Part shown: piece after piece, positions 30,125-34,732 of the stretch
How positions within the stretch are numbered: the stretch's first letter is position 1
Layout of the letters: every line of letters begins with the position of its first letter
NCBI GenBank assembly: GCA_030037635.1
Contig: JASHQH010000211.1
Location: 1 to 64,000 of the forward strand
Direction of reading: 5' to 3'
DNA from: Acidobacteriaceae bacterium
GTDB taxonomy: Bacteria; Acidobacteriota; Terriglobia; Terriglobales; Acidobacteriaceae
Length of the DNA: 64,000 nt
The notes under the pieces: generated by a model
Database searches by the model: none
Told to the model about the DNA's origin: nothing
What the model saw: only the letters and a program-made list of their open reading frames with translations
Position numbers and translations under genes: made by a program

Positions 30125-30180
30125 CTGTTCCCTGCTTTCTCGTTCCCTTGGTCCTTTGGTCCCGGTTCTTACTCCCTGCT
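30125..30180. repeat. GGGAACAAG polypurine repeat (pyrimidine strand on +), overlapping ddl 3' end
   Basis: TGTTCCCTGCTTTCTCGTTCCCTTGGTCCTTTGGTCCCGGTTCTTACTCCCTGCT. Confidence 0.6.
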
Positions 30181-31377
30181 GTACGTCGTCCGATTCTTTT
30201 CCCCCTGCCGCTCCAGCGCCAGTTCGATCAGCCGCGTGATGAGGTCCTTGTAGCTGAGTCCCGAAGCCTCCCAAAGCTTGGGATACATGCTGATGCGCGT
30301 GAATCCCGGCATCGTGTTTACCTCGTTCACAAAAATGCGGCGTTTGCCGTCCGGTTCCATCAGGAAATCGACGCGTGCCAGCCCCGCCAGGTCGCACGCC
30401 TTGAACGCCGTCACCGCCATCTGCTGAATTCCGCGGCTCTGAGCGCGCGAAATCGGCGCGGGAATCACGGGCACAGACCCCTCGGACAAATATTTGGCCT
30501 CGTAGTCGTAGAATTCCTTGCCGGGAATGATCTCACCCACCACGCTGGCCTGCGGATCGTCGTTGCCCAGCACGGCAACCTCAAACTCCCGCGCCTGCGC
30601 AGCTTGACCGCCGCGACTGGCCTTGCCGGGGTCCCCGGCGACAGGTCTTCGTCGCTGGGGTGACTTGCCGCCTACGCCTTGCTCCACAATCAGCTTGCGG
30701 TCGTACCTGGCCGCCAGGGTCAGCGCCGGCCCCAATTCTTTGCGGTTGTGCGCCTTGGTGATGCCCACCGACGAGCCCAGGTTCGCCGGCTTCACGAACA
30801 TCGGGTAGCGGAGCGCCCGCTCGATCTGTGCCACGGCCTTGCGCGGCGAGTTTTCCCAATCCGAGCGCAGCAGCGTGACGTGCTTGACGATAGGCAGCCC
30901 GGCCTGCGCGAACAGGCGCTTCATCACGTCCTTGTCCATTCCTGCCGCCGAGCCCAGCACGCCTGACCCCACATAGGCAATCCCGGCCAGCTCAAACAAT
31001 CCCTGAATGGTGCCGTCTTCGCCAAACGTGCCATGAAGCACTGGAAAGACGACGTCGATCGCCCCTCCTCTTGGGCCTTGCGCACCCGGCTCGGGAGTCA
31101 GCAGCGTGGGAATGCCCTCGTGCAGCAGCTTGGCACCCGGCGTCGCCTCGGGATCGCCGGCCCGCAGCCGCCGCCCAACCTCGCTTGTGTCGCCAGAGAG
31201 AAGATGGTTCGCATCCGCGGCAGCCAGCCATCGGCCCTCCTTGGTGATGCCGATGGGCGTCACGTCGAACTTCTCGCGGTCGATCGCGCCCAGAACCGAC
31301 GCCGCCGACAGCAGTGAGACCTCGTGCTCGCCGCTACGCCCGCCAAAAAGAATGCCTACCCGCAGTTTTTTTGCCAT
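30169..31377 (-). CDS. ddl: D-alanine--D-alanine ligase, with an in-frame insertion
   Basis: MAKKLRVGILFGGRSGEHEVSLLSAASVLGAI, VVFPVLHGTFGEDGTIQGLFELAGIAYVGSGVLGSAAGMDKDVMK, FVNEVNTMPGFT. Insertion GGKSPQRRRPVAGDPGKASRGGQAAQ lies between VEQGV and AREFEVAVLGNDDP. Confidence 0.92.
   Translation of the reverse strand: MAKKLRVGILFGGRSGEHEVSLLSAASVLGAIDREKFDVTPIGITKEGRWLAAADANHLLSGDTSEVGRRLRAGDPEATPGAKLLHEGIPTLLTPEPGAQGPRGGAIDVVFPVLHGTFGEDGTIQGLFELAGIAYVGSGVLGSAAGMDKDVMKRLFAQAGLPIVKHVTLLRSDWENSPRKAVAQIERALRYPMFVKPANLGSSVGITKAHNRKELGPALTLAARYDRKLIVEQGVGGKSPQRRRPVAGDPGKASRGGQAAQAREFEVAVLGNDDPQASVVGEIIPGKEFYDYEAKYLSEGSVPVIPAPISRAQSRGIQQMAVTAFKACDLAGLARVDFLMEPDGKRRIFVNEVNTMPGFTRISMYPKLWEASGLSYKDLITRLIELALERQGEKNRTTYSRE
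30625..30660. repeat. CCCCAGCG...CGCCGGGGACCCCGGC hairpin repeat, copy 2, inside ddl coding sequence
   Basis: Minus-strand reading CCCCAGCGAC-GAAGACCT-GTCGCCGGGGACCCCGGCAAGG; GCCGGGG-T-CCCCGGC palindrome at 30625-30639. Confidence 0.7.
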
Positions 31378-31449: not shown

Positions 31450-31992
31450 TCAGCAATTATTCCGCTTGACTAAAAGAGAACAAAAGGCGAACATTTGCAT
31501 GATGGACTCAGAACTAAAGATCGATGAAGTAGGCTATTGGACCGAGATTAAGCTCGCGATTCTCGACGAGTATGCCAAACCGTACAATCAGATTCTGCAC
31601 GCGCGAAAACTAAGAACGATCTACATCGACGCCTTCGCAGGAGCTGGTCACCATCGCGCTAAGGGCAGTAATAGGATCATCGAAGGCAGTCCCGTAAGAG
31701 CGCTTAACGTTTCGCCGCCTTTTGATCTCTTGCACCTCATCGACGTGGATCAAGCCCGGACTCGGGAGCTCGCACGCATCGCCGCGGGGAGAAAAAACGT
31801 AAAAGCCCACACCGGAGACTGCAACCGGGTGCTGTTGAGGGATGTATTTCCGGCTATAAGCTTCACAAATTACGAGCGAGCCCTTTGCATTCTAGTCATT
31901 ATGGAGTGACCGGTTCCCTGCGCGATGCGTGGGTTAGTCTGTGAGACCTGAAGGCAGCACAGATCAGAGCCACAAGCGGAGAGGAACCGGCC

Positions 31993-33120
31993 ATGAAGGA
32001 AAAGGTACGATTTTTGGGCATGGATGTCCATGCGGAGACGATTTCCGTCGCTGTAGCGGAAGCCGATGGAGAGGTACGAAGCTTTGGCACGATAGCCAAC
32101 CGCGCGGAGTCGATCCGCAAGCTGATTAAGAAGCTGGGTCCAGTGGAGCAGCTGCGAGCCTGCTACGAGGCCGGTCCCACCGGCTATGTTCTCTACTGGC
32201 AGTTGAGCGAACTTGGGGTAGATTGTGCGGTCATTGCGCCGACTCTGGCCCCGGTGAAGGCGGGGGATCGGGTCAAGACCGACCGACGGGATGCGGAGCG
32301 GCTGGCACGCAGCCACCGGGCCGGCGACCTGACGGCGGTCTGGGTTCCCGATGCGGGCTGCGAAGCGCTGCGCGACCTGGTACGGGGGCGTGAAGCGGCC
32401 AAGCAGGATCAGTTGCGTGCGCGTCACCGGTTGAGTAAGTTTCTTTTGCGCCAGGGACAACGCCCGGCGCGCGGGGTGAAGGCCTGGACCGTGGCCTACA
32501 TGAGCTGGGTTCGGCAACTTCGCCTTGCCCAGCCGGCACAGGATGCAGTCCGGCTGGACTACCTGCACGAGGTGGAACACATGTCGGAGCGGATCAAGCG
32601 GCTGGAAGAGGCGATCCGTGAAGCGGTCCAACAGGCGCCGCCGCCGATGCAGGCGGTTGTTCAGAGACTGCAGGCGCTACGCGGCATTGCACTGATCTCG
32701 GCCGTCACGATCGCCTCCGAGATCGGCGCGGTTTCTCGCTTCCCCAACGCACGGCAGTTGATGAGCTACAGCGGCACGGTGCCCAGTGAGAACTCCAGCG
32801 GCAAGCGTACACAACGCGGCGGGATTACCAAGTCGGGCAACGCGCACCTCAGGCGCATCCTGGGAGAAGCGGCCTGGAGTTATCGACGCCAGCCTGCCGT
32901 AGGGCCGGCGTTGCGCAAGCGGCAGGAGGGCGTGCCGGAACCGATCCGGCAGATTGCCTGGAGGGCGCAGATACGACTTTCCAAGCGTTATGCCCGGCTG
33001 GCAGCCGCGGGCAAGGATCAGAGGAAGATCGTTACTGCGGTGGGCCGCGAGTTGCTGGGTTTTGTCTGGGCGATCGGCCTCCGCGCAGAAGCATCTGTGC
33101 AACAGACAATTGCCGCCTGA
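31993..33120 (+). CDS. IS110/IS1111-family DEDD transposase (Tnp_IS116/IS110/IS902 C-terminal domain)
   Basis: FLGMDVHAETISVAVAE (D), CYEAGPTGYVLYWQL (E), VKTDRRDAERLAR (DxxD); C-terminal LQALRGIALISAVTIASEIGAVSRFPNARQLMSYSGTVPSENSSGKRTQRGGITKSGNAHLRRILGEAAW. Confidence 0.95.
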   Translation: MKEKVRFLGMDVHAETISVAVAEADGEVRSFGTIANRAESIRKLIKKLGPVEQLRACYEAGPTGYVLYWQLSELGVDCAVIAPTLAPVKAGDRVKTDRRDAERLARSHRAGDLTAVWVPDAGCEALRDLVRGREAAKQDQLRARHRLSKFLLRQGQRPARGVKAWTVAYMSWVRQLRLAQPAQDAVRLDYLHEVEHMSERIKRLEEAIREAVQQAPPPMQAVVQRLQALRGIALISAVTIASEIGAVSRFPNARQLMSYSGTVPSENSSGKRTQRGGITKSGNAHLRRILGEAAWSYRRQPAVGPALRKRQEGVPEPIRQIAWRAQIRLSKRYARLAAAGKDQRKIVTAVGRELLGFVWAIGLRAEASVQQTIAA

Positions 33121-33466
33121 AAGCAAAGACAACTGCAAAGGCAAAGACTTTTCCAAAGAATGAAAAAGCCAAAACACAGATGATTGGCGCCACCCAATTC
33201 GAGGACAGAGCCAGCTGCAGCCGGGGCACACACGAAGGAGAATCCTCGCAGGCTCTATGCGACAGGCTCAGCCGGACTCGCGACTCTAGTCAGAGGCAGC
33301 TTCCGACGGATCATGACCATGCGGTTCCGACCCGCGAATATCAGACTGATCAATCGTCGACTACTCTGCTTCGGCTGCCGCTGGCCCTGTCCTTGATAAC
33401 GACAAAGGCAACAACAAAAAAACAACCCCACAAGGGCGCAGCTATTGACAGGGTGACTCCATATCA
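33121..33466 (+). ncRNA. Candidate bridge/seek RNA region in the 3' non-coding end of the IS
   Basis: 346-nt non-coding right end versus 98 nt on the left. Stem CGACG-GATCA (33304-33313) / TGATC-AAT-CGTCG (33347-33359) encloses a loop with CCATGCGGTT (33317-33326), which matches target flank CCATACGGTT (33470-33479) at 9/10. Confidence 0.4.
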
Positions 33467-33904
33467 GATCCATACGGTTTACACCTCGAATGGCAGGTGA
33501 TAGAAGCAGCCGGAAAATCGGGTGTGGTCGAGATTTTCTTAATTTCCCCGTCATGGATATGAATATGAATGTTTTTTGGGCTAATCCTGGCAGGGTGTCG
33601 GGCGCGAATCAAGAACGCATGAGCAAATTTTGGGGGGACGAAAGTTGGAGGGAAGCCTTTTACGAACCAGTTCAAGGGCTGTTTGGACCAATGGAGGAGA
33701 AGAATCCCATCGGGGATGTGGTTAGGGCCTTTCAAGCCCGTCTCAAGCGCGTCGCTGGTTTCGGCTTCGTGCCCGATCCCATGCCGATGAGAAACTCCAA
33801 GGAAGCGATCGTCTACTTTCTGTTCTTTGCAGCCCACAAACCGGTCGCGGCCGAAATAGTGGAAGATATTTTCAAAAAGTATGAGCTTTATGGGAGGAGG
33901 TTAG

Positions 33905-34732
33905 ATGGCTGAGCACTCCACTATCGAATGGACTGACGCCACCTGGAATCCTGTGCGTGGTTGCACGAAGATCAGCCCCGGCTGCAAACACTGCTATGCA
34001 GAGGTTTTTGCGGAGCGGTTTCGCGGCGTGGCTGGTCATCCCTATGAGCAAGGCTTCGACCTACGCCTCGTCCCCGAAAAGCTCGCTGAGCCCCTGCGCT
34101 GGCAAACGCCGAAGATGATCTTCGTGAATTCCATGAGCGACCTTTTCCACGACGGAGTGCCGGACCACTACATCGAAGCTGTAGCGACGGTTATGGTCAA
34201 GGCCAATTGGCATACCTATCAGATCCTGACCAAGCGGTCTGCGCGCATGGCGAGCCTTCTTCATGGGCGACTTCGGTTCGCGGCAAAATCCGGGCACATC
34301 TGGTGGGGGGTCAGCGTGGAGAACCGTGAGTACGGCCTTCCCCGCGTGCGCGATCTTTGCGATTCACCCGCACGCGTGAGATTTTTGTCGATTGAACCTC
34401 TTCTCGAAGGGCTTGGCCGCCTGAGCCTCTCGGGCATTCACTGGGTAATTGTGGGAGGGGAGAGCGGCAACGGCGCCCGGCCGCTGAAAAAAGAGTGGGT
34501 CACCTCGATTCGCGACCAATGCGATAACGCCAGAATTCCCTTCTTCTTCAAACAGTGGGGAGGCGTGCGTAAAAAGCGGGCTGGGCGAATGCTCGACGGT
34601 AAAACCTACGACGGTTTTCCAGCGCGCGTCAGCAATCCGGTCTCGCCTGCCGCAACAGCTCTCGGCTGGGCGCGTGAAATCCGCGAAAAGTACGACTCGT
34701 CGCTGGCGGAGCTTTTGCCCGTATTGGCGTAA
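33905..34732 (+). CDS. DUF5131 / phage Gp37-Gp68 family three-Cys-motif protein
   Basis: MAEHSTIEWTDATWNPVRGCTKISPGCKHCYAEVFAERFRG, MIFVNSMSDLFHDGVPDHYIEAV, HTYQILTKRSARM, HIWWGVSVENREYGLPRVRDL, FLSIEPLLEGLG, HWVIVGGESGNGARPL, FFFKQWGG. Start overlaps the tcmP stop by 8 nt. Confidence 0.93.
   Translation: MAEHSTIEWTDATWNPVRGCTKISPGCKHCYAEVFAERFRGVAGHPYEQGFDLRLVPEKLAEPLRWQTPKMIFVNSMSDLFHDGVPDHYIEAVATVMVKANWHTYQILTKRSARMASLLHGRLRFAAKSGHIWWGVSVENREYGLPRVRDLCDSPARVRFLSIEPLLEGLGRLSLSGIHWVIVGGESGNGARPLKKEWVTSIRDQCDNARIPFFFKQWGGVRKKRAGRMLDGKTYDGFPARVSNPVSPAATALGWAREIREKYDSSLAELLPVLA

What the first reader, a model, noticed from the sequence alone, without database searches (positions are those of the whole stretch)
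33121..33466. Candidate bridge/seek RNA in the IS right end, with a loop matching the insertion-site flank
The 3' non-coding end (346 nt) is much longer than the left end (98 nt). From established knowledge, IS110-family elements encode guide RNAs in a non-coding end, reported on the transposase 3' side for IS1111-type elements. A stem CGACG-GATCA / TGATC-AAT-CGTCG (33304-33359) closes a 33-nt loop containing CCATGCGGTT. This matches the right flank of the target, CCATACGGTT (33470-33479), at 9/10, and the mismatch becomes a G:U pair if the RNA pairs with the bottom strand. A second guide was not convincingly found; only GAAT in GCGAATATC resembles the reverse complement of the left flank GCATTC. 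A chance match of this length is not negligible.
Basis: partly seen in the sequence, partly recalled or inferred. Interest (0 to 1): 0.7.

Follow-up and report, generated by a model that had tools for sequence, protein, structure and literature searches.

The report
Bridge RNA of an IS110-family element

Summary
The insertion sequence (31896-33467; IS110-family transposase 31993-33120) interrupts a tcmP gene. Its 3' non-coding end encodes a conserved structured RNA (33199-33396): 51 paired positions across 36 relatives, 15 with compensatory double changes. That loop is nearly invariant in 59 copies inserted at different sites, and it fits their own flanks no better than shuffled flanks (2.98 against 2.99 of 10). 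It contains AATATCAG, matching the element's right terminus CATATCAG, so it is most likely the donor-binding loop. The target guides lie in the preceding hairpin. In an unbiased scan, RNA 33251-33254 are complementary to right-flank positions +4..+1 (z 4.7-8.0), and RNA 33286-33287 equal left-flank positions -2 and -1 (25/27 and 27/27). For 28 distinct guides, own right flanks match 3.82 of 6 against 2.01 shuffled (0/20000). The window copy fits 5 of 6 informative non-core positions. This is a new member of the known RNA-guided IS110 family, arranged like IS1111 elements but with a transposase from a separate lineage (nearest named: ISSso6, ISEc45, 44% identity).

The parts
31896..33467 (+). 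IS110-family insertion sequence, 1572 bp counting the right-hand AG; core dinucleotide AG at 31894-31895 and 33466-33467
   Evidence: Ends conserved in relatives; joining the flanks restores the tcmP reading frame ALCILDPYGLHLEW, uninterrupted in 11 homologues
31993..33120 (+). IS110-family RNA-guided transposase, 375 aa (DEDD N-terminal domain and Transposase_20 domain)
   Evidence: PF01548 E 6.7e-17, PF02371 E 2.5e-21; NF033542 E 1.2e-71; distant match to IS621 and ISCro4 structures
31900..31911 (+). left subterminal inverted repeat TATGGAGTGACC
   Evidence: 11/12 against the reverse complement of 33452-33463; conserved in relatives
33452..33463 (-). right subterminal inverted repeat (GGTGACTCCATA on the + strand)
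   Evidence: conserved GGTCACTCCATATCAG in relatives
33199..33396 (+). bridge/seek RNA: outer stem plus target-binding hairpin plus donor-binding hairpin
   Evidence: fold z -4.18; 51 consensus pairs, 15 with double compensatory changes, 96.6% of cells paired against 32-38% when slid
33199..33227 (+). outer stem, 5' arm (partner 33368-33396)
   Evidence: 13 of 19 pairs of this helix show compensatory double changes
33368..33396 (+). outer stem, 3' arm
33244..33296 (+). target-binding hairpin: CCTC/GAGG stem, internal loop carrying both guides, inner TGCG/CGCG stem
   Evidence: consensus structure
33249..33256 (+). right-target guide CAGGCT plus CT (core complement); [quoted passage not shown]
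   Evidence: RNA columns 33251-33254 complementary to flank +4..+1, z 4.7-8.0, 0/2000 permutations; 28 distinct guides 3.82/6 against 2.01, 0/20000
33283..33289 (+). left-target guide ACTCT plus AG (core); [quoted passage not shown]
   Evidence: RNA 33287 and 33286 equal flank -1 and -2 in 27/27 and 25/27; 15 distinct guides 2.87/5 against 1.84, 3/20000
   Evidence: nearly invariant across elements with different targets; fold
33337..33344 (+). left-donor guide AATATC plus AG; ATATCAG is identical to the element's right terminus 33461-33467
   Evidence: RNA AATATCAG and terminus CCATATCAG are nearly fixed in relatives; one parallel change CAG to CGG in both RNA and terminus in L140; also in Shigella ISSso6
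33314..33318 (+). tentative right-donor guide TGA-CC (complement of the left terminus AG-TCA)
   Evidence: sequence only; TCA of the left end is nearly fixed, so no covariation test was possible
33445..33450 (+). TTGACA, -35-like box completed by the left end (TCATTAT) in a circular intermediate
   Evidence: TTGAC within 32 nt of the right end in 57 of 59 elements; role inferred from circle-junction promoters of known members (PMC11187229)
31466..31895 (+). 5' part of the interrupted tcmP gene (target gene)
   Evidence: TIGR04474 E 1.5e-24
33468..33912 (+). 3' part of the interrupted tcmP gene (also carries a later frameshift)
   Evidence: joined translation against homologues L172-L182

Best explanation
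The 3' non-coding end of this IS110-family element encodes a bispecific guide RNA (bridge RNA or seekRNA), about 198 nt (33199-33396), that the 375-aa transposase uses to choose both its target and its own ends. Shown by comparison: the RNA has an outer stem and two hairpins, and the internal loop of the first hairpin carries the target guides. Inferred from known members: the element excises as a circle, the joined ends make a promoter for transposase and RNA, and the RNA-protein complex recombines the circle into a target with an AG core, without duplication beyond the core.
For: Unbiased scan of RNA columns against flank positions (51 right and 27 left flanks): the four strongest right-flank signals form one antiparallel complementary diagonal, and the two strongest left-flank signals are -2 and -1. 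Own against shuffled flanks: 28 distinct right guides z 8.0, 0/20000; 11 guides more than 2 bases apart, 1/20000; 15 left guides, 3/20000. Natural retargeting: L094, 98% identical to the window over the RNA, has guide CAGGCC-CT and flank GGCCTG, a perfect fit. Conserved structure with compensatory changes. Insertion point verified against uninterrupted homologues. The window's own site fits 5/6 informative non-core positions; 0.19% of AG-core sites do as well. The same RNA layout occurs in Shigella ISSso6, 44% transposase identity, whose guide GTTAGCG-CT fits its right flank CGTTAAC at 6 of 7.
Against: No transcription or activity data. The window's own guide fit is imperfect: 3/6 on the right guide (plus core) and 4/5 on the left, and with G:U allowed over all 11 non-core positions it is not exceptional (5% of AG-core sites). 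The donor-loop role rests on sequence identity and one parallel change; the right-donor guide is unproven. Elements share ancestry, so permutation values are optimistic, although the result holds for guides more than 2 bases apart. Rfam has no matching model.
Confidence: 0.93

Rival explanations
1. One reading: the 33304-33359 loop is the target-binding loop, with CCATGCGGTT pairing to the right flank.
For: 9/10 match, 10/10 with G:U, to the window's own right flank.
Against: In 59 elements the same RNA segment matches its own flank 2.98/10 against 2.99 shuffled. The loop is nearly invariant while targets vary. About 1.5% of random 20-mers match as well. A different segment tracks the flanks.
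Confidence: 0.02
2. The second hairpin is a protein-binding scaffold of the RNA rather than a donor-binding loop, and the ATATCAG identity with the terminus is accidental.
For: Its near invariance also fits a transposase-binding element. The seekRNA paper (PMC11187229) reports target matches in its seekRNAs.
Against: Seven identical bases in a position equivalent to the left-donor guide, retained in ISSso6 whose inverted repeat is otherwise different; a parallel CAG to CGG change in L140; IS621 has the same two-loop layout with a donor loop second (PMC11208160).
Confidence: 0.12
3. The conserved 3' region acts mainly as DNA (ends, attachment sites) or as a terminator/UTR, and the flank correlation is inherited ancestry.
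For: Related elements share both flanks and guides in one subclade (TAAC|AG|GCC).
Against: Compensatory changes in the outer stem; the correlation survives with one element per distinct guide and with guides more than 2 bases apart; the right-flank signal is strictly antiparallel and complementary while the left-flank signal is parallel and identical.
Confidence: 0.03

Closest known systems
IS1111-type seekRNA elements (ISEc11, ISPa11, ISKpn4; PMC11187229)
   Same: RNA encoded 3' of the transposase gene; subterminal inverted repeats; top-strand guide 5' of the bottom-strand guide; short matches overlapping at the insertion point; circle-junction promoter motif.
   Different: Transposase is 375 aa rather than 330-350 and only 23-24% identical to the IS1111-family reference IS4321 and its relative IS5708, in a separate clade; motif GTVPSENSSG lacks the L of GL-P----SG; a donor-binding loop is apparent here.
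IS621 bridge RNA (IS110 group; PMC11208160, PMC11208158)
   Same: Two internal loops, target-binding first and donor-binding second; [quoted passage not shown] guides on opposite DNA strands.
   Different: IS621 encodes its RNA in the left end and has the guides in the opposite order (left-target guide first); transposase 29% identical.
ISSso6 / ISEc45 (Enterobacteriaceae, IS110-like)
   Same: Nearest named elements by transposase (44%). ISSso6 has the same donor hairpin sequence (83% over 42 nt), terminus CATATCAG and a guide fitting its flank.
   Different: Different subterminal repeat sequence and target; the donor-hairpin motif was not found in the ISEc45 copy examined.

Membership tests
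IS110 family (broad, RNA-guided DEDD transposase) | DEDD N-terminal and Transposase_20 C-terminal domains | tested here: met
   PF01548, PF02371; NF033542 241.7 bits against cut-off 140
IS110 family (broad, RNA-guided DEDD transposase) | Structured guide RNA in a long non-coding end, with segments complementary to both strands of the target | tested here: met
IS110 family (broad, RNA-guided DEDD transposase) | Insertion at a core dinucleotide without longer target duplication | tested here: met
   AG on both sides; tcmP frame restored on joining
IS110 family (broad, RNA-guided DEDD transposase) | RNA is expressed and bound by the transposase | not testable with these tools
   needs RNA-seq or co-purification
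IS1111 group | Subterminal inverted repeats of 7-17 bp | tested here: met
   TATGGAGTGACC, 11/12 against the right end
IS1111 group | Guide RNA downstream of the transposase gene | tested here: met
   347-nt right end with the RNA; 97-nt left end
IS1111 group | Top-strand guide located 5' of the bottom-strand guide | tested here: met
IS1111 group | Transposase in the IS1111 clade (330-350 aa, GL-P----S(T)G motif) | tested here: not met
   375 aa, GTVPSENSSG, 23-24% identity to IS4321/IS5708, separate branch; hence filed as IS110 family that works like IS1111, not as a strict IS1111 member
Bridge RNA with donor-binding loop (IS621 type) | Second internal loop complementary to the element's own ends | tested here: inconclusive
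   Left-donor guide AATATCAG repeats the right end; right-donor guide only TGA, no covariation available

The most novel reading that the evidence does not exclude
The element belongs to a third transposase lineage (acidobacterial elements plus ISSso6/ISEc45-like ones) in which an IS1111-like RNA arrangement evolved or was kept apart from the IS1111 clade. Its target and donor hairpins share a layout (core dinucleotide, ATGCG inner stem, ACYCGCG, guide, AG) that could reflect duplication of one ancestral guide hairpin. The layout is clear, but the sequence similarity between the two hairpins is only marginal.
Probability: 0.25. Interest if true: 0.5.

Novelty: new member of a known kind. Interest (0 to 1): 0.36.

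Why it matters
The family offers dozens of naturally retargeted copies in acidobacteria, with target guides and flanks that can be read side by side. This independently supports the bridge/seek RNA model in a lineage that I did not find described in the papers read, and gives a compact set of candidate programmable recombinases with the guide positions already located. It also shows how a plausible 9/10 loop-to-flank match in a single copy can point at the wrong loop.

Tried and rejected
Rfam scan of the element: one sub-threshold hit (isrK) outside the element, nothing else. The first test of that loop used a shifted register and was repeated correctly. Covariation of the donor hairpin with the left end: only background signals. 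Common origin of the two hairpins by sequence: not convincing, 4-14% of shuffles as good. Sigma-70 promoter inside the element: none. The two hairpins folded alone are not clearly more stable than shuffles; the evidence for the target hairpin is conservation, not energy. The donor-hairpin motif was searched for and not found in the 46-48% identical acidobacterial elements, the ISEc45 copy or the Bradyrhizobium element, so the RNA of those is undescribed here.

Full report
The element. The transposase at 31993-33120 (375 aa) matches DEDD_Tnp_IS110 and Transposase_20 and NCBIfam NF033542, 'IS110 family RNA-guided transposase'. The ends are conserved in relatives: left AG|TCATTATGGAGTGACC, right GGTGACTCCATATCAG|. 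The element is 31896-33467, with an AG dinucleotide at both junctions and a 12-bp subterminal inverted repeat (11/12). Joining the flanks at one AG gives ALCILDPYGLHLEW, the conserved motif of TcmP (TIGR04474), which is uninterrupted in eleven acidobacterial homologues. The insertion point is therefore secure.

Right end 347 nt, left end 97 nt, the 33304-33359 stem and the 9/10 match all exist. The match is weak evidence: 1.5% of random 20-mers in the window match the loop as well when any 10-mer, either strand and G:U are allowed.

Relatives. A genome-collection scan (31 loci), a sampled order-level search and DNA searches of the family and genus gave about 65 distinct copies of the right end, nearly all in acidobacteria; 59 have a readable right flank and 27 distinct left flanks were read. 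They sit in many different sites.

The RNA. The alignment of 36 right ends gives a consensus of 51 pairs. 96.6% of cells are paired against 32-38% when the structure is slid by 1-3 columns, and 15 pairs have compensatory double changes with none of 500 shuffles reaching that. The compensatory changes are mostly in the outer stem (33199-33227 with 33368-33396), with single cases in the inner target stem and the donor stem. The window RNA folds at z -4.18. Inside the outer stem lie two hairpins with the same plan: an internal loop whose two strands flank an inner TGCG/CGCG stem.

Which segment reads the target. I scanned every RNA column against flank positions 1-12 on each side, for identity and complementarity. 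For the right flank, the four strongest signals are RNA 33253, 33252, 33251 and 33254, complementary to +2, +3, +4 and +1 (z 8.0, 6.6, 6.0, 4.7; 0/2000 permutations each), one antiparallel diagonal. For the left flank the two strongest are RNA 33286 = -2 (25/27) and 33287 = -1 (27/27). Scored as whole guides, own right flanks match 3.82 of 6 positions against 2.01 for shuffled flanks over 28 distinct guides (0/20000), and 4.09 against 1.88 over 11 guides more than two bases apart (1/20000); left guides 2.87 of 5 against 1.84 (3/20000). L094, 98% identical to the window over the RNA, carries CAGGCC-CT where the window has CAGGCT-CT, and sits at GGCCTG, a perfect fit. Three elements with GT in place of the CT core complement (L101, L152, L155) have altered sequence at the right core; L155 reads AC there, as expected.

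Its 3' strand, AATATCAG (33337-33344), repeats the element's right terminus CATATCAG, and both are nearly fixed in the family. L140 shows the same A-to-G change in both (RNA AATATCGG, terminus TATCGG). Shigella ISSso6, at 44% transposase identity and with different subterminal repeats, keeps the hairpin (83% over 42 nt) and the CATATCAG terminus. By analogy with IS621, where the second internal loop binds donor DNA (PMC11208160), this is most likely the donor-binding loop. The partner guide for the left end (TGA against TCA) is only suggestive.

The window copy. Its right guide CAGGCT fits the flank ATCCAT at 3 of 6 positions plus the core; its left guide ACTCT fits ATTCT at 4 of 5. On the six positions that the family scan singles out, it fits 5 of 6, which 0.19% of AG-core positions in the window achieve. 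With G:U and all 11 non-core positions it is unremarkable (5%). The window insertion therefore agrees with the guides but would not have revealed them alone.

Expression. TTGACA at 33445-33450 is 17 nt from the left-end TCATTAT in a circularised element, and TTGAC is found near the right end in 57 of 59 copies. Junction promoters of this kind are described for known members (PMC11187229). No promoter of this type was found inside the linear element.

Classification. Subterminal repeats, downstream RNA and guide order (top-strand guide first) are the IS1111 arrangement described in PMC11187229 and PMC11208160. The transposase, however, is 375 aa, has GTVPSENSSG in place of GL-P----SG, and lies outside the clade of IS4321, IS5708 and ISShdy1, at 23-24% identity. 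It is filed as an IS110-family element that works like IS1111 elements, in the neighbourhood of ISSso6 and ISEc45. PMC11187229 already notes IS110-group elements with a downstream non-coding region, so this is a new member of a known kind.

Limits. There are no expression or activity data. Elements share ancestry, so permutation numbers overstate independence. Flanks were located by pattern and not curated by hand for every copy.

Noticed in passing
L005, L007, L008, L011, L019, L045, L054, L061, L073, L127; e.g. L011 around 4466: One subclade of these elements (left guide TAAC-AG) sits repeatedly in a longer conserved site, about CTCAAnTGnnGnTAAC|AG|GCCnAnnCACTCATTGA. Seven of eight acidobacterial genomes searched hold matches (about 4-14 each, up to 2 mismatches; backward control at most 1 in any), many of them without the element, so it seems to target a dispersed repeat of unknown nature.
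   Followed up: partly
G000:C158:2181-2288 (L002): A remnant of the same RNA (donor hairpin intact, target hairpin altered, terminus ATATCAA) elsewhere in the window's genome; the transposase search found no partner there.
   Followed up: partly
window 33468-33560: The interrupted tcmP gene also carries a frameshift just after EIFL, so it is broken twice.
   Followed up: partly
window 33905-34732: Gene next to tcmP weakly resembles radical SAM mobile pair protein A (TIGR04471, far below cut-off); possibly the three-Cys-motif partner of TcmP.
   Followed up: no
window 30169-31377 (- strand): D-alanine--D-alanine ligase gene with an apparent in-frame insertion of about 20 residues between the two matched stretches (residues 238-257).
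   Followed up: no
L101, L152, L155: Elements whose right guide ends in GT instead of CT have AC/AT/AA-like sequence instead of AG at the right core, suggesting the core dinucleotide can change together with the guide.
   Followed up: partly
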